In this document: one piece after another, positions 36,900-63,586 of the stretch | How positions within the stretch are numbered: position 1 is the first letter of the stretch | How the letters are laid out: each line of letters opens with the position of its first letter | Source of the DNA: Siphonodentalium dalli | Taxonomy: Eukaryota; Mollusca; Scaphopoda; Gadilida; Siphonodentaliidae | Length of the DNA: 64,000 nucleotides | Reading direction: 5' to 3' | Assembly: GCA_032622095.1 (NCBI GenBank) | Contig: CP136065.1 | Span: forward strand, 98,711,343 to 98,775,342 | The notes under the pieces: generated by a model | The model's input: the letters and a program-made list of their open reading frames with translations, nothing else | Databases searched by the model: none | What the model was told of the DNA's origin: nothing | Program-made: the position numbers and the translations under genes

Positions 36900-37265
36900 A
36901 TAACTTGTCTGATAATAGTACTATTATCAATAAAGCCGAAGCCAGGACCAGTCGTTCGATAAGAGACGCTTACCTCTGGGTAAACTCCGTGGTGGAATTC
37001 GGAATCCTGAAATTTATAAATAGCGGTTAGAATATATGAATGACCACTTTGTAGTTAATGTGGCTAAGAATTCCCCTTTTCCATTTGTTCTAGCAAAATG
37101 ACTATACCATAGTCTACATGTATGCAGCATACTGCCGATGAAACTACCAATGTAAATCCGAAAAAAAAGATGAAAGTTAATTCCACTTGAACAGGAATAT
37201 GTTATATGTTATAATTATGTCATTATATGCCATATATTGGCAGTTTTTGTGTTTTTTATTTGGAA
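36900..37265. repeat. Direct repeat unit M, copy 1
   Basis: Contains 'ggaccagtcgtt' before the exon, then 'taccatagt.taca', 'gatgaaactaccaat', 'agatgaaagtta' and 'catatattggcagtttttg'. The same series occurs at 38370-38725. The copy at 39415-39560 retains only the exon-proximal third. Confidence 0.85.
36974..37006 (-). CDS. Candidate 33-nt micro-exon (unit M1, copy 1)
   Basis: Minus strand: acceptor 'tttataaatttcag', 33 nt in phase 0, then GAG|GTAAGC. It reads DSEFHHGVYPE. The exon and at least 250 bases around it are a copy of the units at 38435 and 39489. Splice signals and length class are retained while the sequence differs. It is the last micro-exon before the protease. The product is unknown: hydrophilic and acidic with no family match. 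No transcript evidence is available. Confidence 0.6.
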
Positions 37266-37744
37266 GAGGTTGGCGTGTACCAACTTAAAGAGGAAGCATC
37301 TGCGCAGGTTAGAGAACACCGAAAATGTTTGTGACGTTGCTATGTAACTGAATCAGACGTTCTTCGTAATTTTAACAGAAACTATAGTAAGTTCGTTCTA
37401 CAAACCGCAGCGCACGATGCTACGACACAAATGACGTAATATTAAAAAAAAAGAAAGAAGCCTATTATTATTATTTTGTCTATATCTATTATCAATGTAC
37501 ATATCGACACAGCTGTAATATATTTAGAGCCGTGTGATCCCCTTGTTACTTGTGATGTAAGATAAATTATAGTTCTTATTATATAGCCACTTATTATTGT
37601 CAAAATATACATGAATAAGGACAAGTCTCACCTGTCGACGGAGGGGCATACACACACGCATGGGAATTACACTGTACCATGTAATAAATCATAACTGTTT
37701 TATACCATAATTGCCTGTTCTATTGTGTGTATAACGCCTATTTT

Positions 37745-37865
37745 GTAAACTTCACGTTTACACCCTACTATGGGTATACAGGATCCTACTATGGGTATAA
37801 ATTTCTACTGTGGTTGTAAATGTTCAAACGTAATTTCATGTGTTAAACGTGTATACCCATAGTAG
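37745..37865. repeat. Small inverted repeat
   Basis: 'cctactatgggtata' (twice) faces 'tatacccatagtag' about 80 bases on, making a foldback with a worn middle. Confidence 0.6.
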
Positions 37866-38174
37866 AACTACATCGTAGTTAGCAAAATAGTTCCTATGTC
37901 ACATTGATTTAAAATTGTAAGTTGTCATGATGTAAATTAGATATGAGGAAAATTGCTTGCATTTCAATCAAATGTAGTATTGTAGCTTGCCAGTGTTATA
38001 TAAACTAGGAAACATAATTATGAATGGTAATAATGTATGCATCACTACGCGTGACGCATATTCCTTGTAGCTTCGTGTTTGTGTATCTCGGTGTGGATAC
38101 ACATTCAAAGTAAACAGCGGAGTATTTGAATTGGATGAACAAATCAAAAATAATAATTATGGCATAAATAAAAT

Positions 38175-38280
38175 AAACGCATAGTAGCCGAGAGTACAAA
38201 ATTTTCACCACCTTTGGCGAGTGGTTAAAACAACAATTCCACTCGTGGTGAAAATTTGGTATTCTCGGCTACTATGGGTG
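38175..38280. mobile_element. Foldback MITE
   Basis: 'catagtagccgagagtacaa' and 'aattttcaccacc' pair with 'ggtggtgaaaatt'-like sequence and 'attctcggctactatg' at the right. The loop is short. It sits between two micro-exon copies. Confidence 0.75.
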
Positions 38281-38369
38281 TATTATATATATCACACACT
38301 CCAAATTAAGGAGAAATGGCTGAAACGACATTAATCGCTAATAAATAAATAAATCAATCAGTCATACAG

Positions 38370-38725
38370 CTGGTAGTAATACTATTACTGATAGTTCTCA
38401 AGTGAGGACCAGTCGTTTGACATAAGACACTTACCTCTTCTCGTTGTTGGCATTCTGAAACCTGAAATTTACAAACAGAGGTTAGTGTCTATGAATGACC
38501 CCAGGAGTCATTACGTCTAGGAATTTATATAGTGACCAATGTGTCTACGGATTGACCATACCATAGTATATGTAGCATACTTCCGATGAAACTAACAATT
38601 TAAAACCGAAAGAAAAGATGAAAGTTAAATAGGAACATGTTGTCTGTTATAATTATGTCATTATATTCCATATATTGGCAGTTTTTGCGCTTTTGATTTG
38701 GAAGGGGTTGACGAGTATACCGACA
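38370..38725. repeat. Direct repeat unit M, copy 2
   Basis: Second copy of the unit described at 36900-37265, in the same orientation, carrying the 27-nt exon version. Confidence 0.85.
38435..38461 (-). CDS. Candidate 27-nt micro-exon (unit M1, copy 2)
   Basis: Acceptor 'tttgtaaatttcag', 27 nt in phase 0, then GAG|GTAAGT. It reads VSECQQREE. Compared with its sister copies it has lost exactly six bases, so the frame is kept. It gains a cysteine. The donor here is the strongest of the three copies. Confidence 0.6.
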
Positions 38726-39199
38726 TAAAAACCAGTCTCATCTACCGAGAGGCATACACAAACTCATGTACAATTTATTTGTCCGACAACTGCCCGACGA
38801 AGGCATTGTCAGGAGTATTGGAGGAGGTGTCACCTTCACCCCAACTGTAGTATACGGCAACAGCACTTATTAAAAGTAATTAAATAGAGTTGTAAGTCAG
38901 TGTGACATCTCTCTATATACTATATCCAGTGACATATACCTATTTCCCGTTATCGAAATAGGTAGATAAATACACGAACTACCTTTCTACGAGCGTTATA
39001 TGTTCCAGAAACGTTGAATACGGTGTTTGTATCCCAAACAAAAACAGCCATATGCACAGCGTGGCACAGAAAGTGAGTTTGTTTCAGTATGTGCGAAAAC
39101 TTGAAAACAGCTGGAAAATATCTATGACCACAGGAAGTATTTTTCAGAGAATATGATGCCGGTATATCAATATTTCGTGTATTTGTCAACATATCTTAT

Positions 39200-39430
39200 A
39201 CATCCTTACAAATTACGTAGATATGACCCATCCATGTCCGTTTAAAAAAGTACAAAAAATTAAAGTTGAGAAACAACTCTCGCATCCAGAGTTTCAGGAT
39301 ATTGCTGGACCTCGACTGTCAGCTGAACATCGAATATTTCCTGTGGTTGTGTCCGCAAGGAAATGCGTTGATGCCAGCACCCAGACAGAGAGTCGAAACA
39401 ATGTAGTCAACCAACCATACATCTGTTAGT
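39200..39430 (+). pseudogene. LINE ORF1 fragment
   Basis: The plus-strand frame reads MTHPCPFKKVQKIKVEKQLS then HPEFQDIAGPRLS. This resembles the segment following the last zinc knuckle in LINE ORF1 and the relic at 26071-26690 (CP....F..E..LS....I.GPR.S). Only about 65 residues remain. Confidence 0.55.
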
Positions 39431-39600
39431 AATACTGTTACTAATAGTTACGAATCAAGGACCAGTCGTTTTTCTAAAAGACGCTTACCTCTGGGTAATC
39501 TCCGTGGTCGGGGCCTGAACCCTGAAATGTATAAACATCGGTTAGTGTCTACGAAAGACCACACGCGTCATTACATCTAGAGTGATCACTGCGGATACGA
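39415..39600. repeat. Direct repeat unit M, copy 3 (partial)
   Basis: Matches the exon-proximal part of the unit at 36900-37265 and 38370-38725 (ggaccagtcgtt..., cggttagtgtctac..., gtcattac.tctag). Confidence 0.8.
39489..39521 (-). CDS. Candidate 33-nt micro-exon (unit M1, copy 3)
   Basis: Acceptor 'tttatacatttcag', 33 nt in phase 0, then GAG|GTAAGC. It reads GSGPDHGDYPE. Against copy 1 there are eight base differences in 33, and seven fall in codons that change the residue. Its context (same strand, same phase, conserved splice sites) supports a real exon rather than chance. Confidence 0.6.
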
Positions 39601-39807
39601 ATCGTCTGTGCTATCCCAAAAAATTGCCTGTGACCATGGGAAGTATTTTTCAGTGCAAATGAAGCCGGTATATCAATATTTCGTGTATTTTGTCAACCTA
39701 CATTATTCCTCCTTCCAAAGCTCGAATGAACCATGTCCGTTGATATACTCTATCGAAAACATTGATTATATTTCAAAGAATTCGCTCTTCACTTTACCAA
39801 CCACGGA

Positions 39808-40428
39808 CGTCTGATCAGTGATTAAAGATACGGACGTCTGGTCAGTGCTCAAAGATACGGACGTCTGATCAGTGCTTAAAGATACGGACGTCTGATCAGT
39901 GCTTAAAGATACGGACGTCTGGTCAGTGCTTAAAGATACGGACGTCTGGTCAGTGCTTAAAGATACGGACGTCTGATCAGTACTTACAGATACGGACGTC
40001 TGATCAGCTCTTAAAGATACGGACGTCTGACCAGCGCTTAAAGATACGGACGTCTGGTCAGTGCTTAAAGATACGGACGTCTGGTCAGTGCTTAAAGATA
40101 CGGACGTCTGATCAGTACTTAAAGATACGGACGTCTGATCAGCGCTTAAAGGTATGGACGTCTGACCAGCGCTTAAAGATACGGACGTCTGATCAGTGCT
40201 TAAAGATACGGACGTCTGATCAGTGCTTAAAGATACGAACGTCTGATCAGCGCTTAAAGATACGGACGTCTGATCAGTGCTTAAAGATAAGGACGTCTGA
40301 TCAGTGCTTAAAGATACGGACGTCTGATCAGTGCTTAAAGATACGGACGTCTGGTCAGTGATTAAAGATACGGACGTCTGATCACTGCTTAAAGATACGG
40401 ACGTCTGGTCAGTGCTTAAGGGACTCAA
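39808..40428 (-). repeat. 27-bp minisatellite, about 23 copies, open on the minus strand
   Basis: The unit starts 'gatacggacgtctgatcag' and is 27 bp throughout, a multiple of three. The minus strand therefore has a 220-residue frame of a nine-residue repeat (STDQTSVSL) ending in VVGKVKSEFFEI. Openness alone is weak evidence, because one plus-strand frame of the unit is open too. Ser/Thr-rich repeats would suit a mucin-like segment. A possible donor (GGTTG|GTAAAG) follows the array, but the possible acceptor upstream (agtcccttaag) is weak. It lies between micro-exons on the same strand. Confidence 0.85.
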
Positions 40429-40466
40429 TGCCTTCCAAGTGGGTTCATGCGAAATGACACAATAGT

Positions 40467-40605
40467 TGCCTTAAGTAATCGACTCCTGAACCACATCAGA
40501 ATTATGGGTAACTTTTCAGGATTTAGTCGGAAATACGGCTTGTTGCCATTCATCGGAAAGTTCAATATTTTGCGTGGTTAAGGGGTCGATTACTTAGGGT
40601 GTATA
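40467..40605. mobile_element. Foldback MITE, copy C2 (diverged)
   Basis: 'taagtaatcgactcctgaacc' at the left faces 'ggttaaggggtcgattactta' at the right. The interior words 'attatgggtaacttttcagga' match C1 at 13555-13696. Confidence 0.75.
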
Positions 40606-40757
40606 AAACAATATAAAAAGGCACATGAAAATATAGATTGTTCTTATATCCATTAGTAATAATTATCCAATAGTGAAATTTCGCATATCAAAACTATTGT
40701 TATGTAAACAGTGGAATTATTTAAGCAAGTCCAATTAGTCCAATTAGACACCAAAGT

Positions 40758-41259
40758 TTAAAGGCACGTGCGGCCTTAGTTGTCGAAAATATTCATATTT
40801 GTTCCAATCACCGTAAACAGAAAAACATTAAAACGCATACAGTTTCGTTCATATATACCATGACCATCGCGTAAACAGCATGTTATCATAAAGACCTACT
40901 ATGTTTTACCTAAGCAAGAGCCTGCTTGTGTTATAGAAGACAGCACAATGCTACTGGCTAATCACACACAAATGGCAGAAACGCTCTTTATTAGATCCAT
41001 ATAAGGAATTCACCAACAAAGAACGCTCTTTATGTTTACCATCATAATATAAACAAACACCAGAAAAGTAACTTTTTAAGCTTTTGTTTACACAACACTG
41101 GTCAAACATATGACAATAAGATACTGTTTATGCGATATTTCTTATTTGTATACGGACAAAGTCTGTCTAAATTTTGATGTTCTTTCTGTTTGTGGCGGTT
41201 TTTGTCGGGTGGAAATATTTTCACAGCATACCCACCGCCAAGGCCAACCGTACCTTTAA
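40758..41259. mobile_element. TTAA-type MITE, copy A3, with preserved empty site
   Basis: 502 bp between TTAA (40758-40761) and TTAA (41256-41259). The ends are AGGCACGTGCGG and its partner CCGTACCT. The duplicated segment at 48.7 kb reads 'aaagtttaatcaaac' with a single TTAA at this point, so it shows the uninterrupted site. That proves a precise TTAA insertion after the segmental duplication. Confidence 0.92.
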
Positions 41260-41268
41260 TCAAACTTG

Positions 41269-41851
41269 TGTTGTTAAATATATATGTAAAAGTGTCGAAA
41301 AGCGGTGGTCGGTTGTTTAAACACTCCATCACCAGGTACATAACTGACGACGATTCCAGTGATATTTAGCATTTTACTGCAGACTTACACCTACACTTAC
41401 ATTCTACAACTGCTTACTCATGTACATAACTATAAATTTCAAAATTAACCCTTTCGAAAACTCGCGGCATATGCTTACGTTCCTAATTTCTAAATTTGTA
41501 ACACCTAACTATGTACCACACTCCCATCTTTTACTGAAACTACCGGTATGGGACAATCATGAAACTAAAAAATATTTTAATACTCTACGTATAACAAGTT
41601 CATTTATGATAGTGCGTGATTCTACGATACTGGTACGCATACTCTGTCATATGTATACCTATATTTTCCAAATTTCAAAACACCAGGCATACCTCTATTA
41701 TGCTCCTATTTTACTGACTATGGAATTGTCCAAGTTGCGCTTCGGAATGTGTACCTAGATAATGATCACCTTTGTCCATGTTACCGAAGACAGGTTTACC
41801 CTTGTATTATGTGGTGTTCCCAGCCCCCGCCGGATCTCTATATTTTATAAC
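41269..41851. mobile_element. Insertion of unknown class with 18-bp duplicated target
   Basis: Absent from the sister segment at 48.7 kb. Flanked at the right by 'caaagtttaatcaaacttg' (41851-41869). The same string is at the left but is split by MITE A3. An 18-19 bp target duplication is in the range of non-LTR retrotransposition, though I see neither poly(A) tail nor reverse transcriptase motifs. The 112-residue plus-strand frame inside has no recognised family. Confidence 0.65.
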
Positions 41852-42285
41852 AAAGTTTAATCAAACTTGATGGTAAATATCGGTAAAAGGTAAATATTCT
41901 GAAAATCATATTCATACTAAGCTATTTGAACTTACTACACGACTAGCGATGTTTGTTTAATAATCACTGTAATAATTTTGTTTGCATAACAATGGTTTCG
42001 ACACTCGACATTTCGTTATTGGAGAACTATCAATATTAAATATAAGAACACAGTTGATCGATTTCTCCATGTTCTTCTTGGTGTTGTGATGTTTTACATA
42101 TTTTTGTTATTTATGTACATTTGCCCACTGTGAGTGCCTTGGTTCCATTTAAGTGTTTTTTTTCGGAATCGGTTGATTGAATTTGAAACAGATTCATGCG
42201 CACGATATAAGTTCAATGCGATGACGTATGGTCACTAATAAAACGTCAATTATATGCGATATACGCGTAGATATGATAAACTTAC

Positions 42286-42330
42286 CTCCTGACATTGCTG
42301 AACGTATTGTGCCAAACGCAGGCGGGCGTC
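42286..42330 (-). CDS. Candidate 45-nt micro-exon (unit M2, copy 1)
   Basis: Acceptor 'tatcttttccag', 45 nt in phase 0, then GAG|GTAAGT. It reads DARLRLAQYVQQCQE, an amphipathic-looking, Gln-rich peptide with one cysteine. The sister exon at 49137-49181 keeps every splice base. The product function is unknown. Confidence 0.65.
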
Positions 42331-42924
42331 CTGGAAAAGATAAGATATGTAAGCAAGCAACAGGTTCGCGTATGTTCTCGGTCATTTACAAAATAACCCT
42401 TTCTATACTAAATACTCATTGACGAGTAGTTCCCTTAAGATATATTCAGAAAATAAGTTCAACAAACAACCAGGTCGTTTGTTGAACTTCTCATTTGAAT
42501 ATTCCCCATCAATGAATATGAATCCTTCTGCACTTGTATTATCTTTTCGTATGTACATGTATGTGGTCTGCTGTTTTCTTTTTCTGAACACCGCTCCAAA
42601 TTAGTTGATAGTCCAATCCAATGTATACTGTTATAGCTGAATGGGAGAATCCATTTAGTATAGAGCTGGTTAATTAATATTATAGCGTGAGCTTACGATT
42701 GTTTTCTCACTTAATAGCAACCACAAGCGCACGAAGCGCGCGTTGGTGTTCATACCTTAGGCGCAGGTGAATGATGACATCATATATTTGTTTCTATATT
42801 TTCCATAGCGATGAGCCAAATTCAGGAGGCGTGTACGTTTTATCGTAAAAAATGACACGTGACTTCCGGTTAGATACTGTCTGGAGACTGCCAATGCGCG
42901 TACCCGGCTATGAAATTGGCGACT

Positions 42925-43550
42925 TCGCGTCGGCGCAATGTCGCTCCACCACAGTGCAATTTCGCTTCTGTGCAGTGCAATGTCGCCGCTCCGCAGTGAA
43001 ATTGCGCTTTAGTGCAGCGCAAAGTCGCCGCACCTCAGTGCAATTACGCTTCAGTGCAGCGCGATGTCGCAGTGCAATTGTGCTTCAGTGCAGCACAAAG
43101 TCGCCGCACCGCAGTACAATTGCGCTTCATTGCAGCGCAAATTCGCCGCACCACAGTGCAATTGCGCTTTATTGCAGCGCAATTGCGCCGCACCACAGTG
43201 CAATTGCGCTTCAGTGCAAAGCAATGTCGTCGCAGTGCAGTTGCGCTTCAGTTCAGCGCAATTTCGCTGCAATACAGTGCGAATGCGCTTCAGTACATTC
43301 CAATGTCGCTGCAGTTTAATGTAATTGCACGTCATTGTAGCGCAATTTCGCTGCAACGCTGCGAAATTGGGATGCGTTGCTATTAAGTGCAATGCAGCGC
43401 AATAGTCAGAGTGTGTGCATTTGGCCGCCGAAACCACGCTGGTTCTTGTTCGTTACAGCGTGCTCGCTGGATCGCATATGCACAGCGCAATTTCGCTTAA
43501 TCTCAGCGCAATTCCGCTTGAGCACAGCGCAATTGCACTTGAGTGCAATC
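42925..43550. repeat. GC-richer minisatellite of 'gcgcaattgcgc'-type words
   Basis: Diverged units of roughly 40-48 bp carry 'cagtgcaattgcgcttcagt', 'gcagcgcaat' and 'gtcgccgcacc'. The repeat gives Cys/Arg-rich frames of 85-155 residues in several frames and on both strands at once. That is typical of a simple array and not evidence of coding. Confidence 0.85.
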
Positions 43551-45030
43551 GTTCTTAGGTTAGTAGTCAAATGTGTGTGCATGCATGGTGTGTAGGCATT
43601 ATGAATTATCATATATATAAATAAAATGATAACCGTTTTCGCAAAAGATATATGCGAAAAAAACACAACGCAAATGTGCCTACTTCACAATCAAATCAGC
43701 ACAGTGAAATAGCCAAGGGTGTACCCTTTCCAGTGATCCATAGCACTACCTCGTGTGTTAAGACTGCTTAGTTATTGCGTTTTGTAATAACGCACCCGCC
43801 TCTTTAATAGCGGCATTTAATTTCCCTCCAGACAAATGGCTTAACGTGATAGGCGAACACAGTTTCCATAAATTTCCGTCTCGCAAAGAATTGGCGGCAC
43901 AAAAGTTTCATCGGCATATCATTTCGCTCGAGATAAATAATTGAACCAATCTAGCCTAACACGGCGAAATGCTTCCACGGTTTCCGTCGCGCGAAAGGAA
44001 TTGGCCGCCTGCCAGCTACTCCAATCGAGATCGCTATGCAAGTTTTTTTTTAAATCTTTTGTCAGCGATGGTGTCAGCGATGAAGTACGATTCGATGTCA
44101 ATTTTAACATGGGTCGACATGGTGGGAGAAGTCGAGATCGGACCTCAACCAAATTTGTTGTCAAGTTGATGTGGGGGGCTTATATGACCTTGACACTAAA
44201 ATGACCTTGTCCTTTGTTAAAAGACATCGCACTGAAAGGGCTATTTTGCTAGATATGTGTTGCGATGTACGCGCTTATGTCAATATTCAGAGGCCTCGTA
44301 TAGCTATCCTTGATAAATATACCGGTATCAAGGAGGCTCCTACATACTTGAATCTGTATCTGACGAACAGACACATGGGATTACGATATCAAGTTGACCT
44401 TGACCTCCATAGAGATTAACATAGGAGACGAGTGGAATTGTGGGTAAAAATCGCGATTTGGAGATGCGCATATTAACGGGAGCTGTATATTGAATTTAAT
44501 GTCTTCTGTCCCGTGTCACACAGACCCGACCCAATGAACTAAATATCGGCAAAAAAAATACTTTTCAGGTATAGACCATTTTTTCAAGTAAAATGCAACT
44601 ATCATTGGTAAAATGTGTCTAGTGTTTTGGTCTATCTTAAATGTGTCACACTACGGTATATATAGACCGAATTGCTCAAGATGGCTTCAAAAATGGCAAC
44701 CAAATTTGTAAAAAGTTTTTTTTTACATATATCCTGAACATTATTCTCTGTGTTATCCGAAAAGGTAGTACATTGTGACTCACTTGGTTATTATACGTGT
44801 TAGTTAATTAACTGACAACTATATGTTCTATTCTGGTTGTCCCAGTTCCGTATGGGGCATGACAAATTCATTTTAAAGTATGGAATTTTGAATATATCCT
44901 CTTTTGTGATTCTGGCCATATTATTGAATGGAAATGGGCAGAACGTTGAGACGGAACCGATATGAACCATACTCTGTGGCTATTCTGGTCCATTATGGTA
45001 AAAGAAAATATCAACTGGATTTAGGGTGGA
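43551..45030. other. Non-coding stretch
   Basis: Frames of 80-87 residues at 43919-44419 on both strands have no recognisable motif. No element ends were seen. Confidence 0.4.
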
Positions 45031-45039
45031 TGCCAAGAT

Positions 45040-46690
45040 GGTAGTCAGGGAGTTACTCTATGATCACAGTTGAGGTGAATAGGTATACAGGGAGTTATTG
45101 TATGTCATGAATGATGTGAATAAGTATACAAGGAGTGACTATATGGTTATGTGTGGGTTGTCCATTGTAAGATGTATAGGTATACAGGGAGAGATCATGG
45201 TCATGTGTGAGGTGAATCGGTATGAATGGAGTGACTCTATGTTGTATGGTTGTGTATATCCAGTACGGGTGCACCCGATGTGCCTGAATGGACATTGATG
45301 TGGTGTATGGATATAGTTACATGGCCATCTATGTGTTGATTATGTAAGGTCATGGGTGGGATGTACATGTGTTGTCTGTATGATCATGGATGGGGTGTGT
45401 GGATACATAGGGAGTTATTTTATGGTTACGGGTAATGTGTATATGTATACATGGAATGACTGTACGGTCATGATTGACGTGTATATGCATACCTGGAGTA
45501 AGCTGGGTGGAGATTATGGAGCGTGTGGGTATATATGGAGTGTCCTTGTGGTATATATTTATATATCTCGTGGATGTATTATCATTGGTGGGTGTATAGG
45601 GATTAGCTATATGATCATCGATGGCGTGTATGATTATACAGTGAGTTGCTGAATTGTCATGTGTGAGTCTATATGCAAGTATGGAAGGTATGATTGGTCG
45701 TGTGTACAGGTTTTTTGTATATCTGGAAGGGCTGAATGGCCATTGGTGAGGTGTATATGTATCCCTGGAGTGACTCTGATCTAGGGTGGGCTGCATATGT
45801 ATATATCGAGTGGTTATATGACTATGTGTCGAATAGGTATACATGTAGTGACTGTATGGTCAATGGTGATATGAGTACATGTAGATATACACGGAGTGAC
45901 TATGATAATAAATGTAATGAATATCTATACAGGGAGTGACTAAATGGCCATGTGTCAGGTGTATGAGTATACCCGGTGTTCCTGCTTGGTGACTCGTGGC
46001 GGTATGGTCATGTGTATGGTATACGGGTTGCTATATGGTCATGGGCGAGGGTTATGTGTATATAGCGAGTGGCTATATGGCCATGGGTGAGGTGCATATG
46101 CATACATGGAGTGACTTTTCTGACATAGCTGGGGTGTATTAGTATATCTTGTGTCGCTATTCGGCTATGGTGCGACACATAGGGATACATGGAGTGACAT
46201 AGCCAATGGTGATGTGAATATGTATACAAGGATTGACCATGATCATGTATGGATGTTTTGAATAGGTACACACGGGGTGACTATATGGACATATGTCAGG
46301 TAAAGGAGTATACCAGGTGGCATGGGTGAGGGTATGTGTATGAAGCGAGTGGCTATATGGCCATTGGTGAGGTGCATATGTATACCTGGAGTGACTCTAT
46401 GGTCATTGTTGTGGTGTTGATGTATATATTGAATGTCTATTTGACCATCTGTGTGGAGAATAGGTATACAGGGGATTACCGTATGGCCAATCGTGAGGTG
46501 AATGCATGGGTATACACGGAGTGACTAGATGGTTATGGGTGATGTTTAGGAGTATACCCGGTGGGCCTCCATTGTGACTCATGGATGTATGGTCCTCCGT
46601 GGTAATGTGTCAGGTGTACGTATAAACATTGGGTCACTATATTGTTGTGTCTGTGGTGTTTATGTATATATGGAATGACTGTGTGATAAT
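45040..46690 (+). repeat. Satellite array, about 50-bp degenerate unit, forward orientation
   Basis: Units of the type 'ggagtgactatatggtcatg' plus 'tgtgaggtgtatatgtataca' follow each other for 1.6 kb with strong drift. Reading frames up to 164 residues here are artefacts of the repeat. Confidence 0.85.
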
Positions 46691-46699
46691 GGGTGGCTA

Positions 46700-47320: not shown

Positions 47321-47329
47321 TGATCAGTT

Positions 47330-50330: not shown

Positions 50331-50335
50331 ACTCT

Positions 50336-51001: not shown

Positions 51002-51939
51002 GTTTAGGTGTTATACGGTAGGCTTTTATTAAAGTTACGTTTTCAAATTCGTTTCCTTCGTTGACGTATATTCTGTCATCTCGATTATTCTTCTTCCAAA
51101 ATTCGTACACATGGCGCATTGTTTGCACCTAAAGGTATCGCCATTTTATTGGCCGTATAATAGTGTCAATCTCTCTATTATTATAGTATTTCTTTTGCTT
51201 CTATAAATATTTCATTATGTTAATTTTCCAATGCAATGGACAAAAATAGCAGTTGCTAAATCTACATGCAAGAAGACTGACCATGTGGACTTCGCCGCTT
51301 AGTATTATTGGGTCTGCTAATTCTCGGTGGGGAAATCACGTGGTTTCGATGTGTATTCAAAATGGCCGAGGCAAGTGCAAACACACATAAATATAATATA
51401 TGAGGAAGAGACACAAAACATAGCATTTTGACTGTTATGAGCATATGGTAGTTTATATTTAAAACAAGTTGATACCCTCAAATGTAAATGCTCAATAGTT
51501 TTCTATAAAATTCTGCATGACCAAAGTTGCCAGTCGGAGGTTCGTCAAATACAGCAGTCCATACATCTAGGAGAATCCTTCGACTGACAACTTTGGTCAG
51601 AATGTTATGGCAAACAACTGTAAGTTTTGATACAAGTGAGCAAATATCAGCTCCCTTGAAAAATAGTATAGCATATGCTCGTACATATAGCTGCCAAAAT
51701 AATATGTAATATAACATATCCTAGTTTATTGTCGTTGTCCTCGTTCTGGTCGCGTTTGCGATCGCCTCGGCCATTTTGATACTCATCAACTCGAAACCAC
51801 GTGATTTGCCACCCTGTAGTTCTATATTCAGAACCGCGATATCTTTTGTATTAAAGAACGAATTCGACATATCGTTGTTTAGGTGAGTGATTCCCAAAAC
51901 CGGCATTATAAAACCTGCATAATGATTAATCATACTAAC
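51002..51939. other. Non-coding stretch
   Basis: Short inverted words (ccaaagttgccagtcgg / ctgacaactttgg, about 51530-51600) form a small foldback. Nothing else was seen. Confidence 0.4.
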
Positions 51940-51993: not shown

Positions 51994-52011
51994 GTTATTG
52001 TATGACGTCAT

Positions 52012-53600: not shown

Positions 53601-53639
53601 TACGTATATTAACTATGTCTACATGTATATATTCTAATG

Positions 53640-54560: not shown

Positions 54561-56708
54561 TGATAGTTTTCGCCATACTTAACTAATTATCATCTATTCA
54601 TGGCATTTAATGGTGTGTGCTTTTATAGGCGATGTCGTATGTGGCATGGGTTGTGAGCAGGAGCGCATCCTAATGCCGGGATAGAACTTCTTATTGCCAA
54701 TTATTACCAAAATTAGAAATACATGTTGGCATTCCAATGAGTCTGATGGTGAGATTCAAAGTTGGCAGACGTTCAGCCTCATTTATTTTTTTCTTCAATT
54801 TCAATCCAAGTTTACCAATTTGGATATCCACTTGCTTCTTGTTTAATTTTAAAATATTTATCAATGCAATGCACTTTGTCTGACCACTCATTCCAATGTC
54901 AAACTTGGTACGCTATTCTACAAATTGATAACCCTTTGGTTAATTCTACTTGCATCCAAAGTTAAATTGAAGCATGATTAAAACGTGTCTTTCTTTTCTG
55001 ATTAAAAAAAAATAAAACAAAAGTTGGCAGAGCGGTGTCAGGGCCAGGAACCTACATCAAAGTTCGCTCTAAATTTCGACATTCCTTGCTTCTATATTTT
55101 CCAAAGATATCAGCAATTTATTTATTGCAGCTCTCCCAATAACTCTTAAAATGAGCTCTCACAAACAACACATCGAGGATAAAACAGATCTTTTAACTCA
55201 ACTGCCATTTTGTTAGAGAATGGAATCATAGTGATCTAAAAAAAAACTGATACATGACTCATTATCTTTTTGGTTGAGTCTTGACTTGAAACGTATTTTA
55301 TTTGCAAATAATACAACAGGGACTGGGGCACAATTTTTTTCAACTTATGAAGCCCCTCTCCCACTATAGTCGATTTAGATACCACATGTTTACAAGATGA
55401 CAGCTGAACATATTTACATGCATGATTTTGTTATTTTATGGTGATGATGTAGTGCCTTCCAGGGCATATTGCTATATGGGTTATGGCTGGTTTGGTAGCT
55501 ATAAAATTTGGTGATGTTTGTAATTTGTGTTCGTTTTAATTAATGCTGGAGCAGGGTTTTGTGCAAAGGGGTATTTTCTTCATATATATATATATGTTAG
55601 TCAAGTGTTAGTCAGCTACTCTGGAAGACAGTCCATTCGGTAGATCAAGGTGATACAGAACTGGTGATTGAGTGCGAGAGTATGTCCATAAGTGGCGAGC
55701 CAGTAGATTACTAAACTGCGTAGTTGAGTTATTGATAAAGGTGAAGAAAACGGCCAGTATTCATGTCGATGTGAGACATCTTGCTGAAATTTTCGAGCAA
55801 TTGATGACCTAAGTTCCCGGATCTGAGTGCCGTTGGGGTGGGCAGATATGGACACCAAAATTGATAATACAGTCTGGAAATTTCCTCTAAATTTATATTT
55901 AAATTAATATCGTATACATGATACGAGGAATGTACTGGTGTTGTTTGAAGATGCCAAAGGGCACTCTGAGTTAAGGCCAGGTCACGGCACCAAACAGTTA
56001 TCAAACAGTGCCAATATAAACATTAAGCATAATAATACAATGTTTGGTTAATTTTTAAGTGCAAAGTGCGTGTCCATTTAGTGAATTAGCACAACCCACG
56101 TCCGCTATACAATTACAACAATCAGATACTGCAGAGTCTGAAGATACGCGCAGTTGTAAATAAATACTTCTAGTTAATCGCAATAAAAATGGCAATAATT
56201 CCGACCATTAAGATATAACATTGATGGGCGTAACACTTTGAATACCACTATTCTTTATTCCCACCAAATGTCCACAGCGGACATCACTTTAGCCTGGGCA
56301 ATGCCGAGCTACCATGTTAGTATTATATAACACATGACGTGCAACCATTTATATGATTCAAATGAGTCTAATAGGGGTAAGTCTTCACAAGGAAGGCAAT
56401 GATGTAGGTTAAACGTGTCAAAACTGACGCGATCGGAGTCGTTGGTAGAAAGTGGGAGAGGCACCAAAATCGAGGAGAATATTTTGTAGCCAATTTCCAT
56501 CAAACGTATATGGAATCGTCTCTATGCTACATGAACTCTAATTATATGGTTTAAAAATACCAAAGTTACACCAATTTGATAAAGAATACATAACTATTCA
56601 GCTAATTATTGTGTATAAATGCCAATAAAGTGAACACATATGAAGAGTGTTCGTTAAGTTTAACCCTATCAACACTGGTTAACCCAGCCACTAGTATTAT
56701 ATACTCAC
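54561..56708. other. Non-coding stretch with repeat traces
   Basis: No accepted gene. 56380-56620 resembles the 53.6-54.5 kb repeat. A (TA)n run is near 55580. Confidence 0.4.
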
Positions 56709-56747
56709 GCAATGGGTTGCCTGCACCAAATGATGACATCGCCCTTC
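56709..56747 (-). CDS. Candidate 39-nt micro-exon (unit M3)
   Basis: Acceptor 'atttacttttccag', 39 nt in phase 0, then TGC|GTGAGT. It reads EGRCHHLVQATHC with two cysteines. It is single copy in this window and has the same strand and phase as the other micro-exons. It lies upstream of the candidate signal exon at 51940, so it would belong to a longer isoform or a separate gene if that exon is a true start. Confidence 0.5.
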
Positions 56748-56819
56748 CTGGAAAAGTAAATATGTGTTATTAACAGGGTTGGCGCCGACCAACATTTTCT
56801 GTTGTCAAAATAGCAACAT

Positions 56820-57245
56820 TTGGTTTCCGTCGGATGTTTGTCTCTGAATCCCTTCCCGAATATATTAACAGTCTGATATATCCATACACTCCCCGGCGAA
56901 CACTTCGTTCTGGTGAATCGTCCCTTCTCTGTCCTCAAGGCGCAAATCTTTTGACCGTCGGCGACAGAGCTTTCTCTGTAGTCTGTCCCGACATTTGGAA
57001 CTCTCTACCAAATGAAATGCGACAATCTTGCTTGCTAACCGATTTTCGATCTGCTTTAAAAACTCACATATTCCGACGACGCTACCCCGACACAAAGAAA
57101 ACTAACAAAATCTGATTATATATAATTCCACATATCTATTGATTATTTTCCATGTGCATTTCTTGTGTATTTATATAATGTGTAAAGCGCTTAGGGCCCC
57201 TTGCGGGGGATAGGCGCTATATAAATATTATTATTATTATTATAT
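56820..57245 (+). pseudogene. CR1/L2-clade LINE 3' end
   Basis: The plus-strand frame reads PEYINSLIYPYTPRRTLRSG, then ANLLTVGDRAFSVVCPDIWN and SLPNEMRQ...FRSALKTHIF before a stop. This is the standard C-terminus of CR1/L2 reverse transcriptase ORFs ('GDRAFSV.AP.LWNSLP..IR......FK..LKT.LF'). It is followed by 'gtaaagcgcttagggcccc', 'ggcgctatataaat' and (ATT)n, the characteristic 3' tail. It is 5'-truncated. Confidence 0.9.
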
Positions 57246-57452
57246 TTGCCAAATGAACTTTTCTTTTGCCAAATTCCGAACTGACTTGCCAAATTGAATT
57301 GGTGGTCTAATATTTGACAATTTAGGTACAATTCTCATTTGCATATACAATTCATCCATTTGTACACAGAAAATACATGCTTTCGACAAGTTAGTATTCC
57401 GCCTGTTCTCCAGAAAACTCGCACATTATCTGCTTATAATAGAACTAGTTTT
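57246..57452. other. Non-coding stretch
   Basis: Contains 'tttgccaaa' words like those of the repeat at 15023-17136. The LINE tail may have inserted into such a repeat. Confidence 0.4.
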
Positions 57453-57573
57453 GGGTAGGTAATCTGCTTAGAATTCCCTAAAGTTGAGTCGATAATGTGC
57501 TGAAAATGAGAGGGTGTTGGTAGCATTATCGACTCATAATGAAGCAATTCTAAGCAGATTATGTGCGGACAAT
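57453..57573. mobile_element. Foldback MITE, copy E2
   Basis: Arms 'aatctgcttagaatt...gagtcgataatg' and 'cattatcgactcataatg' with 'aattctaagcagatt' form a hairpin related to 33021-33138. Confidence 0.8.
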
Positions 57574-57771
57574 GACACAAATAAGCCATCTCACGAATGT
57601 TCAGGTGTGCGCTCTTTAACATGTGTTTTCAATATGGCCCGCGCCATACAACGAAATAACGGATGTGACTCCATTACTCTGCTTATCTCGGAATCAAATA
57701 ATCACATTATGTACCTATTATACATTATAGGTCGATTATGTGCGTATCTGTGAAAGGATGTTGTACTATTA

Positions 57772-58274
57772 TTAAAGGTACGGTTGGCCTTGGCGGTGGG
57801 TATCCTGTGAAAATATTTCCAACCGTCAAAAAACGCCACAAACGGAAAGAAAATCAAAATGTAAACTGACTTTGTCCGTATACAAATAAGAAATATCGCA
57901 TAAACAGTATGTTATTGTCATATGGTTGACCATTGTTATGTAAACAAAAGCATAACAAGTTACTTTTCTGATGTTTGTTTATATTATGATGGTAAACATA
58001 AAGAGCGTTCTTTGTGGGTGAATTCCTGATATGGAACTAATAAAGAGCGTTTATGCCATTTGTGTGTGATTAGTCAGTAGCATTGTGCTGTCTTCTGTAA
58101 CACAATCAGGCTCTTGATTAGGTAAAATATAGTAGGTCTTTATGATAACATGCTGTTTACGCGATGGTCGTGGTATATATGAACGAAACTGTATGCGTTT
58201 TACTGTTTTTTCTGTTTACGGTGATTGGAACAAATATGAATATTTTCGACAACTAAGGCCTCACGTGCCTTTAA
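57772..58274. mobile_element. TTAA-type MITE, copy A4
   Basis: Bounded by TTAA at 57772-57775 and 58271-58274. Ends AGGTACGGTTGG and CACGTGCCT are inverted. Near identical in reverse orientation to A3 at 40758-41259. Confidence 0.9.
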
Positions 58275-58383
58275 TATATATCAAAGTAGCAATGTTACAA
58301 ATTACATATCTCTGTTACCAAAGAGTGCATCGCCGTCGGAGACAAAGACACTGATTAATACGTCGCCAGTCACATTCGCCTGA

Positions 58384-59887
58384 TTAACCCTTTGAACCCT
58401 GGCGCCCCACAGTGATCGACACCCTGACCCGGGCTCCCAGTGGTATGTCCGCTTAAATTAGATCGTTCCTAGTAGCATGGTGTTGATTATGTTCAAATTG
58501 CGACACCGGTCTGAAACTTTACAGGTTTGTCCCCCATGGATCAGCGATCATTATAAGATCGCGAGACTTTGCCTCGCGGCAACTCCTTGGTAACGGTTGC
58601 TAGGCAACTACCCGGAATTGACTGGAAAATGTAAATATAGCTTATAGCGTCGTAATTCAACCTCAGTGATTGCGTTTTTTGATGCAGGTACTACCCTAAC
58701 GTGAAATTTGAGATATACCCGACCAGAATAGTGAACCAAATATCCCATTTAAGGGTAGCAACGGTTGCTAAGCAAATACCACAACTGATCGAATGACATA
58801 ATTGCACTAACCATTCAGTGGTATGTTTTGCCTTAATTTAGACAGTGTCTAGTCGCATGGTGTTGGTTATGTTGAAAGGGGACACCTACCTGAAACTGTG
58901 AAGGCATGATATATGCATGCACGGACCACTGATCATTGTAAGATCGGGAGACTTTGCCACCCGATCTCGCCTTAGAAACGGTTACTAGGCAATTACCCGA
59001 AATTTGCAGGATAAACGAATTCTAGCTTATAACGTTGTAATTATACATCAGCGAATTGCGTTTCGATGCAACCAATATCCTAATGTGAAATTAAGATATA
59101 CCTGACCATGTGCGAGTAAGTCAACTTGATATGCGATAGACTTTTTGCTGCATGTGGCACAACAGAGACTGATATTACAGAGACCAGAAACAACGTAATT
59201 TCCCGTAAAATATCGTGGCCCCATTGTTCAAGTAAGCTGTCTAGATTGTGTCTACTATACTAACATGTGAAACATGCAACAAAATGTCATATATAGCGCC
59301 ACATTTAACTTAAACGCGGGCAGCCAATCCATATAGACACCTTTGCCAGCGCTGACTTCAATAGGCCAATTTAAATATATATATTAGTGGGTATGTCGTG
59401 TATCAGTACGTTATAAACCATTTATTTGTCATTGTGCTAGTCTGCGCATGCGCGAATAAATCAACTTCATATGCGATAGACCCTTCCCCATATGTAGCAG
59501 AACACTGGTTAATATACACGAGGGTAATTTAAACTGAAATTGTGTGTCTAAATTACGTCTGTTCTCTACACACACGGGGAACACGAAATTATATGCCGTA
59601 TATAGCGGCATAGTTCGCTTAAAATATCGTATGTTTTTGTAGATTATATGCTATGCGCATGCGCATATATTTCTACCCGATACTAGCGGTCAACCATTCC
59701 ATACGCACCATGGGCGCCGCTGACATATGTGGGGGCAATTTAAATATAAATCAGTGGGTCAGACGCTCGTTATACTATATATAAATTTGCTACCGAATCA
59801 TGTCGCTGCACCGAAATATCGGTGTTACGGGATATAGTCACGGTTCGTTTGCACCTAAATATCGGTGTTACGGGTTCAAAGGGTTAA
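58384..59887. mobile_element. piggyBac-like non-autonomous element, copy B3
   Basis: TTAA at both ends (58384-58387 and 59884-59887) with CCCTTTGAACCC / GGGTTCAAAGGG terminal repeats. Nearly identical to 7934-9457 apart from small indels, including loss of a short block near 59318. Confidence 0.92.
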
Positions 59888-60195
59888 CGGGAGTATTTTA
59901 CATCTGCCACGTTGGCGTCCGTAAGAAGTTAGGGTCAATATCAATATCAGTAAAAATAAATTTCGTCTCGGGCCTCGCATCGAGAATCCGCTTGGCTGCC
60001 GTAATCGGATGTTTTGATAAGAAGAAAACAGCATGGCGTCTAAATGCAAATATGCCACTGCAAAATTTAATAAATTGGCCGCAAAGTTGTAGAGTAGGGG
60101 TTCAATAAAACCTGACTTGAGAGCAATTTGTGGAGGTTCAAACATGGCTTGAGTTCGCACGACATCTTGCAACAAATTGCATTAAATAATTCAAG

Positions 60196-60286
60196 ATGTC
60201 CTGCCTGGATTTCTTGGACGAAGTGACTAGAATATTCAGAAGAAAACGCAAAGAGACAAAGAAAAGGCGAAGACTCTGCAAGAGAG
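60196..60286 (+). CDS. Weak candidate first exon on the plus strand
   Basis: An ATG in a fair context (aagATGt) opens MSCLDFLDEVTRIFRRKRKE then TKKRRRLCKR, and meets AGA|GTAAGT. The peptide is strongly basic. The frame also runs on past the donor for another 46 codons. I recognise no family and cannot find a following exon in the remaining 3.7 kb. Confidence 0.2.
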
Positions 60287-60426
60287 TAAGTTTTAACCAT
60301 GGGGCATGGGATGGCTACACTGGTAGATGTCCCCACTTTTCACCAATTATGGGTAGGTTCTGCGACTCGGCAACCCCAGACGAAATGCTCCTGCGCGGAA
60401 ACAACTTATACCTAGTTTACAGATAG

Positions 60427-60889
60427 CCCCACCCTATATGTTGAATAGACATGTATATGCCTATACAATAGTATCATACTACTCTCACGTTTGTACTCTA
60501 GTTCCCACCTTTTTTGACCGCCAATGTGAATCAAATTGAACCCATGGTTTGATGTGGGCGGGCGAGCTGGCTATTTGATGCCATTTTCACATTTATACAT
60601 TACTGGCGCTTCTTTCCAATCCAAAATTTGATTCAAATCAAAGGCTGTCCTACCCTATTTGCGAATTATGTTATTTATAAAAAAAAATGTACGCTTCCGT
60701 TCTCAGAGTCCACCTCACTCTGCCTTTAATTTCTAGTCAATATGATGAACTGCGTGTAAGCGCAAATAAATTAGTTGCAACGGACGTGTCTGTTCGTATG
60801 CACCTGTTTGTCCCATATTATCGTTACATCGTTTTTATGTGATGGCATTTTGCGGTTGATGTTGGTACCACTTGGCATTTACTTCAATA
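60427..60889. other. Non-coding stretch
   Basis: Nothing recognised. Confidence 0.4.
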
Positions 60890-61230
60890 TAATTATATTT
60901 GTACTGCGTCCAGTGGATGTTTGAGCTACATTAGTGTGCTTTGACGTATACTAGCTTCGAGCCAGAAGAGAAAAAGTTGACATGACGTGCTCGACTGTTT
61001 CTGGACGGGCATGGCAAACTCTACAATTTGGACCCACAAAGATGTCGATGAACTTATGTGTATAGTACCGGTAGTAATTTCTTGTTCTTGTGCCGCTATA
61101 ATAGCAGCTTCTGTTTCTGCTTTCAAGCCCAATTGCTGCAACCACCGGTATGATTCATCTTTATCTATATCTGAACTATTTATATACTTAGCATGCTGAC
61201 CATGCATGTTTTTATATCCACATGTCACTT
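60890..61230 (-). pseudogene. LINE ORF2 C-terminal fragment with Cys motif
   Basis: Minus-strand frames read SYRWLQQLGLKAETEAAIIA and AQEQEITT. After a frameshift the reading continues YYTHKFIDIFVGPN, then CRVCHARPETVEHVMS, then an in-frame stop and YTSKHTNVAQ. This matches 'W...GLK.ETE..I.AAQ.Q...TR.Y....' and 'C.C....ETVEHI.SGC..LA...Y..RH..VA' near the end of a non-LTR retrotransposon ORF. The frameshift and stop make it a pseudogene. Confidence 0.85.
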
Positions 61231-61904
61231 GTCTTTTCTAATTTATCTCTTTCTTACTGTCATTCTTAATACGTTTAGACTGTTCTGTTGGTTGACTATT
61301 TTTTTGATTATGTATTGCATTTGCACTGTAATCTTCTTTAAATTTAATGGCCTGTTTTGTGACGAAATGCTTTGTCTTACGATTGTGGTGGTATGCAACA
61401 CATTTTATGTTTTATCTGTATCAATTCTGCTATATTTATCAAGACGAACTAGTACATATTTGAATGATGATTTGATCTCAATTAGGTCCCGTCCTCCTGT
61501 ATTTCTATCCATGAGTGTCCTGTGGATGTTCTCGTTAGTATTGGAATATTGTATATGCCGCTGGTGGTGAGCTATTTTCGAGTTATTCTATCTATCTTGT
61601 TGACTTTTGATGTAAATATGTCAATGCTTGATTTATTGATTGATTGATTGGGGTTAATGTTGCTACATTGTCAGTTTTAGTGGTGGAGGAAATCCGCACA
61701 ATTACTGCTAATATAACAGTTATTTTAATGGCTGATAAACTCGTCTACCATGTGCGGTAAACCACCGGCCATCGGCGAGTAACTCCTCCAGATTACGATT
61801 TTGAGTTACAAAGTCCATCATGGAAACATGTGGATTTGAACCCTCATTGCCAGCGCTGGAGGGAAGATAAGAGGGAAAGAGAACGAGAGTGATAGAGTAC
61901 AGTA
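61231..61904. other. Non-coding stretch
   Basis: The plus-strand frame 61193-61570 (125 residues) is hydrophobic and T-rich, with no family match or splice support. About 61795-61850 shares a dispersed repeat with 11150-11205. Confidence 0.35.
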
Positions 61905-62035
61905 ATGCCCTAATTAATCGACTGCATAACCACAGCATAATTATGGGTAACTTTCTCCCCGAGAGCTTTAAGATGAATGGCAACAAGCCATATTTCCGAC
62001 TAAAGTTTAACAAACGTACGGTCGTTTCTTGATAA
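61905..62035. mobile_element. Foldback MITE, copy C3 (one arm plus loop)
   Basis: 'taatgccctaattaatcgact' and 'attatgggtaacttt' match the left arm of C1. The interior 'atggcaacaagccatatttccgac' matches C2. The right arm is lost. Confidence 0.7.
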
Positions 62036-62159
62036 CTTCTCATCACTGGTGAGTATTTGGTACTGAAGGGATAAAACTAATATCAAGATATCACTAGTTT
62101 CAGTTTCACTCTTGAATATTATAAGTCGTTTTAATGCTGAAATTGGTAATTGTGCTTAC

Positions 62160-62198
62160 CTCTCCTTCTAGCCGGACTCCCACCAGTGATAAATCGCG
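62160..62198 (-). CDS. Candidate 39-nt micro-exon (unit M4)
   Basis: Acceptor 'attgtctttttcag', 39 nt in phase 0, then GAG|GTAAGC. It reads RDLSLVGVRLEGE. It ends in the same GAG|GTAAG context as units M1 and M2, and strand and phase agree with the others. No family match. Confidence 0.55.
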
Positions 62199-62750
62199 CT
62201 GAAAAAGACAATAGTTAAAAAACTTACTCGCAACATTATCTCAGTGAAGCACGTGGGACGCACACAAACAGTTGCATCACATTACTACACGATTTGTAAT
62301 ACGTAAACGCAACGTGCTCGTGTCTCTGTTCAAGTCGTGAGACGAATCTCTTTACATGCTTCGTCCGTAGAAATCATTTCCGTCCGTTCAAAACGTGAGA
62401 ATTGTTAATGTTCTCACCTTTTCTGTCGGGAACTTTATAAAATGGATCAAAGCAGGGAATATATATGTTGTTAATACTTGCTAATACTTGTTATTTGATA
62501 ATTTATTTGAAAGTAGGATGTGGTCCTAGCTCGCGAGTGCATGCTTTTGTGAGCCGATATCGCGGAGAAATGCCACGATTGTAAGGGACCAAAATCGCCA
62601 CAACCACACACTCTCGACCTGGGACATTCACCGACATGTATTGTGAAATACATTATTAAAGAATAAGTATTAACTAAGACAGAGTCATTGGTGAAAACAT
62701 ATGGTTGGTATCATTCTGACATTGCTCATATAACTAAGCAAAACAAAAAT
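62199..62750. other. Non-coding stretch
   Basis: Nothing recognised. Confidence 0.4.
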
Positions 62751-62756
62751 ACCAGG

Positions 62757-63410
62757 TCTTCTTCTACTGTTGGACGTTGAGAAAGCTTTTGATTCTGTGT
62801 CATGGTCATTCATATTGTCCGTTCTTGGGTTCTTCAACTTTAGGTGAATATTCGTTGATTACATCCAAACTTTGTGCAAAAACATTTTTTCGAACGTGAA
62901 CATAAATGGAAATATATCTCTAAGACCCAACATTAAAATGGGTCGCCTTACATTTTCCTATTATGTGTCGAAATTCTTGAGATTGCATTAAGAACTAATA
63001 CAAATATAACCGGAATAAAAATGTGAGATAAAGGTGCAACATAACACAATATGCAGACGATACTACTTTCTTCTTGAGCGATGATCAGCAAGACCTTGAT
63101 GTCCAGTGCACTTGAATTATTAATCATTATTATTTGCTATCTGGTTTGAAAATCAATATGACAAGACACACGCGGTGTGGTTCGGCAGCAACACGGATTT
63201 TACGGAATCTATATGTGATTGACGGATACCTAACTGGCATCGAACTTCATTTAGATTATTAGGTATTACTTTTCACCCAAAAGCAGAAGAGGTCTGCCAG
63301 GGTAACTACGCAAAAATACACTCAGAAATAACAACAAATAATCAGCGATAACAAAATTGGTCTAAAAGAAGCCTGATTCTCCTCGGGAGGGTTACGGTAT
63401 TCAAAATATC
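62757..63410 (+). pseudogene. LINE reverse transcriptase fragment
   Basis: Plus-strand frames give LLLLDVEKAFDSVSWSFI (the 'D.EKAFDSV.W.FL' RT motif), later TQYADDTTFFLSDDQQDL (the catalytic YADD box at about 63050). Later still comes LGITFHPKAEE with NYAKIHSEI and NWSKRSLILLGRVTVFKI, the 'LGI.F......NY...L..I...L..W..R.L...G...V.K' stretch after the palm domain. Stops and frameshifts between the blocks show it is dead. The order is correct for an L1/Tx1-type ORF2. Confidence 0.9.
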
Positions 63411-63559
63411 AGCCCAATGGGGGGGGGGCTGGATGCAAATGAAATCTCTAGGACTTCGAAACTTTGGTCTATCCCAGGAGAGCATTTGAAAATTCGAGAC
63501 TGAGACCCATTATCGGCACGTTTTGACATTGCTAGCACAGACATGTTGTATAAACTTAC

Positions 63560-63586
63560 TTTGGCGTGGCCACCTCCCAATATTCC
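63560..63586 (-). CDS. Candidate 27-nt micro-exon (unit M5)
   Basis: Acceptor 'ctgctttccgttgcag', 27 nt in phase 0, then AAA|GTAAGT. It reads GILGGGHAK. 'ILGG' superficially resembles a protease activation site, but nine residues are too few to argue that. It is the most upstream micro-exon visible, and the chain may continue beyond the window. Confidence 0.5.

What the first reader, a model, noticed from the sequence alone, without database searches (positions are those of the whole stretch)
36974..63586. An array of symmetric micro-exons on the protease strand
Eight candidate exons of 27, 39, 39, 45, 45, 33, 27 and 33 nt (63560, 62160, 56709, 49137, 42286, 39489, 38435, 36974) each have a pyrimidine-rich acceptor, a GTAAGY or GTGAGT donor, an open phase-0 frame and a length divisible by three. 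All lie on the minus strand. Counting duplicates once, five independent units all obey the rule of three. Symmetric micro-exons allow free skipping and combination without breaking the frame, as known for schistosome micro-exon genes. I know of no such array 5' of a serine protease. I chose these by eye, so some selection bias is possible. I did not scan the plus strand equally hard.
Basis: partly seen in the sequence, partly recalled or inferred. Interest (0 to 1): 0.88.

Follow-up and report, generated by a model that had tools for sequence, protein, structure and literature searches.

The report
Protease gene with small symmetric exons
An animal gene for a secreted digestive-type protease appears to carry a row of about nine to eleven tiny exons, each a multiple of three bases, that together spell an unusually arginine-rich lead-in segment whose pieces could be left out by splicing without breaking the protein.

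Summary
In detail: all eight mini-exons are at the stated coordinates, minus strand, lengths divisible by three. Seven of eight stand above background; 56709-56747 has a weak donor and does not. Read in phase 1, the exons join in frame to a complete five-exon S1 protease domain (27576 down to 6704) and to a signal-peptide exon 25 kb beyond the window (89447-89531), with three more candidate micro-exons between (72196, 77114, 84556). The predicted 418-aa protein has no stop and matches Pfam Trypsin 1-220/220. The phase-1 linker has 27 Arg, 0 Lys, 0 Asp, 1 Glu, 0 Cys in 140 residues; the catalytic domain has pI 4.4. Six other protease upstreams, four sampled only to 20 kb, show no such array. 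It resembles flatworm micro-exon genes but fails the schistosome coding-fraction criterion (33% against about 80%). Transcription, splicing and skipping are not shown; the species is not identified. New variant of a known kind.

The parts
63560..63586 (-). micro-exon, 27 nt, phase 1-1, NIGRWPRQ
   Evidence: acceptor 11.8, donor 8.0; 3n, open in all three phases
62160..62198 (-). micro-exon, 39 nt, phase 1-1, RFITGGSPARRR
   Evidence: acceptor 8.6, donor 11.0; stop in phase 2, phases 0 and 1 open; one place in the genome DNA search
56709..56747 (-). doubtful micro-exon, 39 nt, RAMSSFGAGNPL
   Evidence: acceptor 10.4, donor 4.4; not above background on summed score
49137..49181 (-). micro-exon B2, 45 nt, RPTAFGTRSSGMSG
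   Evidence: acceptor 10.7, donor 11.8; duplicate of B1
42286..42330 (-). micro-exon B1, 45 nt, RPPAFGTIRSAMSG
   Evidence: acceptor 12.4, donor 11.8; two places in the genome DNA search, B1 and B2
39489..39521 (-). micro-exon A3, 33 nt, FRPRPRRLPR
   Evidence: acceptor 7.0, donor 11.0; three places in the genome DNA search, A1-A3
38435..38461 (-). micro-exon A2, 27 nt, FRMPTTRR (6 nt shorter than A1 and A3)
   Evidence: acceptor 7.7, donor 11.8; alignment
36974..37006 (-). micro-exon A1, 33 nt, FRIPPRSLPR
   Evidence: acceptor 6.1, donor 11.0; alignment
27429..27576 (-). protease exon 1 (IVNG N-terminus, His57), enters in phase 1, leaves in phase 2
   Evidence: acceptor 4.9, donor 5.9
21182..21272 (-). 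protease exon 2, phase 2 to 0
   Evidence: acceptor 4.1, donor 9.3; aligned to solved proteases
19813..19993 (-). protease exon 3 (Asp102), phase 0 to 1
   Evidence: acceptor 7.9, donor 7.2
12894..13057 (-). protease exon 4 (ends VSACF before GDSGGP), phase 1 to 0
   Evidence: acceptor 9.2, donor 3.7
6704..6877 (-). protease exon 5 (GDSGGP, Ser195) with TGA stop at 6704-6706
   Evidence: acceptor 13.8

Best explanation
This is one gene on the minus strand, about 83 kb long. A signal-peptide exon (89447-89531, outside the window) is followed by 9 to 11 symmetric phase-1 small exons (27-57 nt) and then five exons of an S1 protease. The small exons encode a cysteine-free pro-region, extremely rich in Arg, Gly and Pro, whose last micro-exon stops two residues before IVNG (the Ala codon spans the junction, the Leu is in protease exon 1). 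Shown from sequence: sites, frames, phases, catalytic residues, composition, exon duplications. Inferred: the exons are spliced as drawn; the confidence below is for this gene model. Inferred with less certainty (about even odds): because every exon is 1-1 symmetric, different sets are included in different transcripts, giving pro-regions of different length, charge and number of Arg cleavage sites. The likeliest role, also inferred, is a cationic tether or shield (pI about 12 against 4.4 for the catalytic domain) that is cut off, at Arg sites and at the Leu before IVNG, when the protease is activated.
For: Exact sites. Strict pairs only on this strand, 6 of 6 3n, against 0.20 expected 3n. At summed score >=17 in the gene span 27577-89446: 12 sense pairs, 10 of them 3n, 9 of them 3n and phase-1 open; antisense 3, 1 and 0; Markov mean of the last class 0.56, maximum 3 in 300. 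One signal-peptide-like exon with donor >=9 in 114 kb, both strands, all phases: right strand, right phase, donor 12.7. All exon phases join; 418 aa, no stop. Pfam Trypsin 1-220/220, E 1.2e-47. Phase-1 composition, one exon per family (8 families, the two doubtful exons included): 18 Arg, no Lys or Asp in 95 codons; of 5000 random open samples from the gene span, 0 reach that Arg count, 11 the net charge, 5 the lack of Asp and Lys. Upstreams of six other protease first exons (147 kb in all) have 3 sense pairs that are 3n and open, of 9-18 nt.
Against: No transcript was available. The splice matrix is generic and the cuts were set after seeing the claimed exons. 56709 and 84556 have weak donors (4.4; 5.0). 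Protease exon 1 has a modest acceptor (4.9), exon 2 acceptor 4.1 and exon 4 donor 3.7. 9.4 kb separates the last micro-exon from exon 1. A second, weaker signal-peptide-like start in phase 1 (51282-51426 or -51444, donor 6.4) lies inside the array and could be an alternative first exon or noise. Markov sequences give 0.21 strong phase-1 signal-peptide-like exons per 61.9 kb, so the chosen one is only moderate evidence. Duplicate copies do not settle the phase: the B pair differs at 4 codons, all 4 amino-acid-changing in phase 1 (3 of 4 in phase 0); the A1/A3 pair at 4 codons, 3 changing (5 of 6 in phase 0). 8 of the 9 stronger exons are open in all three phases, so openness alone says little. 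For the three exons found outside the window phase 2, although it holds a stop, is more basic than phase 1 (11 Arg against 4). Alternative splicing is not shown at all.
Confidence: 0.78

Rival explanations
1. Same gene model, but the exons are all constitutively spliced; the array is simply how a low-complexity basic linker grew by exon duplication, with no switching function.
For: Two of the families arose by duplication; 1-1 symmetric exons are what any tolerated duplication or insertion between phase-1 introns must leave; another protease here has an 18-nt phase-1 candidate reading TTVPP.
Against: Nothing in the sequence speaks against it; strong sites fit constitutive use. The number of symmetric exons permits skipping but does not show it.
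Confidence: 0.45
2. Two genes: a secreted micro-exon gene (signal peptide plus array, with its own last exon not recognised by me) and a protease that starts separately.
For: 9.4 kb between 36974 and 27576 without a recognised exon; modest acceptor of protease exon 1.
Against: No signal-peptide-like exon with a phase-1 donor >=6 between 27.6 and 36.9 kb; protease exon 1 starts in phase 1, two codons before IVNG, and lacks the Cys-containing activation segment that 5 of 6 sampled protease first exons carry (my reading of the sequences printed; the sixth, at C5:46.44M, is short and reads PLIVNG), so it needs upstream coding exons.
Confidence: 0.1
3. Chance splice-like pairs picked by eye in a large intron.
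Against: Strict pairs are confined to this strand and to 3n; 0 of 300 Markov sets reach even 6 of the 9 seen; composition in the phase that fits the gene is far from random.
Confidence: 0.05

Closest known systems
Micro-exon genes (MEGs) of schistosomes and tapeworms
   Same: Signal-peptide exon followed by a run of short exons divisible by three that can be skipped in frame (PMC5825161, PMC7653826, passages read).
   Different: Here the array feeds a complete S1 protease. Micro-exons are 33% of coding length (414 of 1254 nt), against about 80% in schistosome MEGs (PMC5825161, passage). Exons are 27-57 nt; 5 of 11 fall within 6-36. Flatworm origin not established.
S1 (trypsin/chymotrypsin) secreted proteases with a pro-region or stalk
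   Same: Signal peptide, pro-region, IVNG N-terminus, His-Asp-Ser triad.
   Different: The pro-region is split over up to 11 tiny exons, has no cysteine and is strongly Arg-rich. 5 of 6 other protease first exons sampled here carry a Cys-containing activation segment within the exon (my reading of sequences).

Membership tests
Micro-exon gene (MEG) | Operational rule of PMC7653826: at least 7 exons, at least half of them under 70 nt and divisible by 3, run of at least 4 consecutive | tested here: met
   On the predicted model only: 17 exons, 11 micro, run of 11; without the two weak ones 15, 9 and 9 (rule read)
Micro-exon gene (MEG) | About 80% of the coding region in short symmetric exons of 6-36 bp (PMC5825161) | tested here: not met
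   414 of 1254 nt, 33%, even counting exons up to 57 nt (criterion read)
Micro-exon gene (MEG) | Encodes a signal peptide | tested here: met
   By a hydrophobicity scan, not SignalP: MELLLVFGVILITASTCYS at 89531
Micro-exon gene (MEG) | Protein variants by differential splicing | not testable with these tools
   No RNA data
Micro-exon gene (MEG) | Flatworm gene | tested here: inconclusive
   Trematode eggshell family and schistosome spliced leader not found; neither shows absence
S1 serine protease (PF00089) | Full domain over the curated cut-off | tested here: met
   163 bits against 20.6, profile 1-220/220
S1 serine protease (PF00089) | His57, Asp102, Ser195 present | tested here: met
   LTAGHC, NDIAVL, GDSGGP aligned to solved proteases 2f91_A and 1dlk_B; the numbering is recalled
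Chymotrypsin-type S1 specificity | Ser, not Asp, at position 189 (recalled rule) | tested here: inconclusive
   The query has VSACFGDSGGP against VSSCMGDSGGP in 1dlk_B, which the table names thrombin heavy chain; the best match, a trypsin (2f91_A), has Asp there. One residue only; specificity not tested

The most novel reading that the evidence does not exclude
A zymogen whose activation and charge are set by splicing. The micro-exon array is the pro-region, and the last exon included decides what stands before AL-IVNG: LPR or TTRR from the A exons, MSG from the B exons. Choosing exons would then set whether a trypsin-like activator can cut there and how strongly a basic pro-region pairs with the acidic catalytic domain or with polyanions outside the cell.
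Probability: 0.2. Interest if true: 0.72.

Novelty: new variant of a known kind. Interest (0 to 1): 0.52.

Why it matters
Micro-exon arrays are best known from flatworm genes whose roles are described as poorly understood (PMC7653826). An array attached to an enzyme of well understood activation would let the effect of exon choice be assayed directly, as change in zymogen activation or binding. It also shows why annotation may miss such pro-regions: the exons are tiny, and the three units searched were found only at this locus, far from the catalytic exons.

Tried and rejected
Phase 0 reading: set aside because it fits neither flanking exon. Transposon origin of the units: A, B and 62160 units were found only at this locus (the tool warns that its DNA search skips very common words); 63560, 56709 and the three outside exons were not searched. 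Signal-peptide exon as member of a multigene family: its own place and one hit at E 9.09. Diverged further copies of A or B units in 114 kb: nhmmer's next best hit had E 0.99, at 56739-56769, over the acceptor of the doubtful exon 56709; the A model's next best was 1.1; taken as chance. Diversifying selection: the B exon differs at 6 of 45 sites against 37 of 761 aligned intron sites, Fisher p 0.027; suggestive only, one pair, not corrected, and the upstream intron (6.9%) differs more than the downstream one (2.8%). A coding exon in the 27-bp minisatellite (39803-40419): open in the sense frame, but I saw no good acceptor in the right phase by eye. Organism: trematode eggshell, mollusc haemocyanin and annelid linker families and a schistosome spliced leader gave no match, and the tool says that for the three families nothing rang in its control genomes either; TTAGGG-type telomere repeat at one of seven contig ends looked at. 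Not identified. Literature: eight searches listed no paper that by its title or the start of its abstract describes such an array in a serine protease. Only (12 of 12; 5 of 5) listed every match; one search listed 9 of 11 and the other five lists were capped (20 of 37, 12 of 48, 12 of 1,143, 10 of 50, 10 of 4,772). Only PMC5825161 (passages), PMC7653826 (passages and one section) and PMC4398949 (one passage) were opened.
Full report
What was checked. The window is a 64-kb stretch of contig C5 of a 2.23-Gb genome in 9 contigs, by its genes and introns an animal's (inference). Searches confirm that 36974, 38435 and 39489 are one unit in three copies, and 42286 and 49137 another in two.

More than chance. 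I scored acceptors and donors with a generic animal matrix whose frequencies I recalled. Third-order Markov sequences of the 36.4-kb region give 0.20 3n pairs on average and none of 300 gave four. On the summed score (>=17) over the gene span 27577-89446 there are 12 sense pairs, of which 10 are 3n and 9 both 3n and open in phase 1; the antisense strand has 3, 1 and 0; Markov mean of the last class 0.56, maximum 3 in 300 runs. The nine come from six independent families. I chose these cuts after scoring the claimed exons; at loose cuts the strands differ little (35 minus and 29 plus pairs at acceptor >=6, donor >=5). 56709 (summed 14.8) does not pass and should be treated as doubtful.

Comparison loci. 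Upstreams of six other S1 protease first exons of the same genome (147 kb after leaving out 11.8 kb, mostly satellite, in one) hold 25 sense pairs at the same cut, 10 of them 3n and 3 of these phase-1 open, and 6 antisense pairs, 2 of them 3n and 1 open. The three open sense ones are 9-18 nt; one, reading TTVPP, may be a real small stalk exon, and a 36-nt candidate in the same locus falls just below the cut. Four of the six were sampled to 19.85 kb only; in the first 19.85 kb upstream of protease exon 1 the window gene has four of its nine. So a dense array is not seen at the loci sampled, but an array lying further out would have been missed at four of them.

The gene. The protease was completed exon by exon: 27429-27576, 21182-21272, 19813-19993, 12894-13057 and 6704-6877, with phases 1-2, 2-0, 0-1, 1-0 and 0-stop. 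Some of their sites score low (exon 1 acceptor 4.9, exon 2 acceptor 4.1, exon 4 donor 3.7). The joined domain matches Pfam Trypsin end to end and has the triad. Its best solved match is a trypsin (2f91_A); at the position that I recall as 189 it has Ser, as in 1dlk_B, not Asp as in that trypsin, so chymotrypsin-like specificity is a guess from one residue. Its first exon needs a phase-1 upstream exon. Scanning on both strands, one signal-peptide-like exon with donor >=9 was found in 114 kb: 89447-89531 (genome C5:98800789-98800873), minus strand, phase 1, donor 12.7. A weaker one, donor 6.4, ends at 51282 inside the array. Markov sequences give about 0.21 strong ones in phase 1 per 61.9 kb, so on its own the exon is moderate evidence. 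Further candidate micro-exons between it and the window are 84556-84612 (donor 5.0), 77114-77140 and 72196-72237.

Reading phase. All 11 exons are open in phases 0 and 1; two are closed in phase 2. Phase 0 joins neither flank. Phase 1 joins both, and gives a 140-residue linker with 27 Arg, 28 Gly, 15 Pro, no Lys, Asp or Cys and one Glu, pI 12.0, before a catalytic domain of pI 4.4. One exon per family gives 18 Arg and no Asp or Lys in 95 codons; in 5000 random open samples none had as many Arg, 11 as high a net charge, and 5 as few Asp plus Lys. Against this, phase 2 is also basic over all 11 (net +14), and the three exons found outside the window are Gly-rich rather than Arg-rich in phase 1 (4 Arg and 11 Gly in 41 codons; phase 2 has 11 Arg but a stop). 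The glycine at most junctions follows from the splice consensus and is no evidence.

How it most likely works. Shown: sites, frames, catalytic residues, composition, duplications. Inferred: transcription and splicing as one gene. Every combination tried (11, 9, 8 or no micro-exons) stays open, so skipping is allowed, but nothing here shows that it happens. A constitutive array is about as likely. The pro-region ends LPR-AL-IVNG after exon A1, so a cut after Arg would leave two residues before the mature N-terminus, and a chymotrypsin-like enzyme might cut after that Leu itself; this is inference.

Known relatives. PMC7653826 (passages and one section read) defines micro-exon genes operationally, and the predicted model meets that rule; PMC5825161 (passages read) gives about 80% of coding length in 6-36-bp exons for MEGs, which this gene fails. 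PMC4398949 (one passage) lists micro-exon gene organisation among proposed gains in parasitic flatworms. I therefore say that it works like a micro-exon gene in layout and do not file it as one. None of my eight literature searches listed, by title or start of abstract, a serine protease with such an array; most lists were capped and the library lacks most subscription journals.

Changes on checking. 

Noticed in passing
window 39803-40419: 27-bp minisatellite, 22.9 copies, inside the intron before A3; on the gene's strand it is open as a Ser/Thr-rich nine-residue repeat (LSTDQTSVS) in a 234-aa frame. No good acceptor in phase seen.
   Followed up: partly
window 40821-41260 and 57771-58210: Inverted repeat, 440-nt arms, 94% complementary, bracketing exons 42286, 49137 and 56709; could favour looping out of these exons.
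   Followed up: no
window about 7956-9462, 21479-23031, 58405-59895: Three copies of a dispersed repeat, 73-98% alike by piece, all within introns of the predicted gene.
   Followed up: no
window 51282-51444: Weaker signal-peptide-like exon in phase 1 (donor 6.4) on the gene's strand inside the array; possible alternative first exon.
   Followed up: no
G000 C1:249229931-249449566: Ten copies of a protease last exon with the same score, at regular spacing (9,690 or about 6,690 bases in places), a recent tandem array.
   Followed up: no
L013-L016 (G000 C9, upstream of a protease exon): About 360-bp tandem repeat whose units carry 34- and 42-nt splice-like pairs; a caution for scans of this kind.
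   Followed up: partly
L020 (G000 C5:46.44M): A protease first exon that, like the window's, is short before the mature end and reads PLIVNG, with no Cys (sequence); 48% identical over 2-46. Its 39.8-kb upstream shows one pair over the cut.
   Followed up: partly
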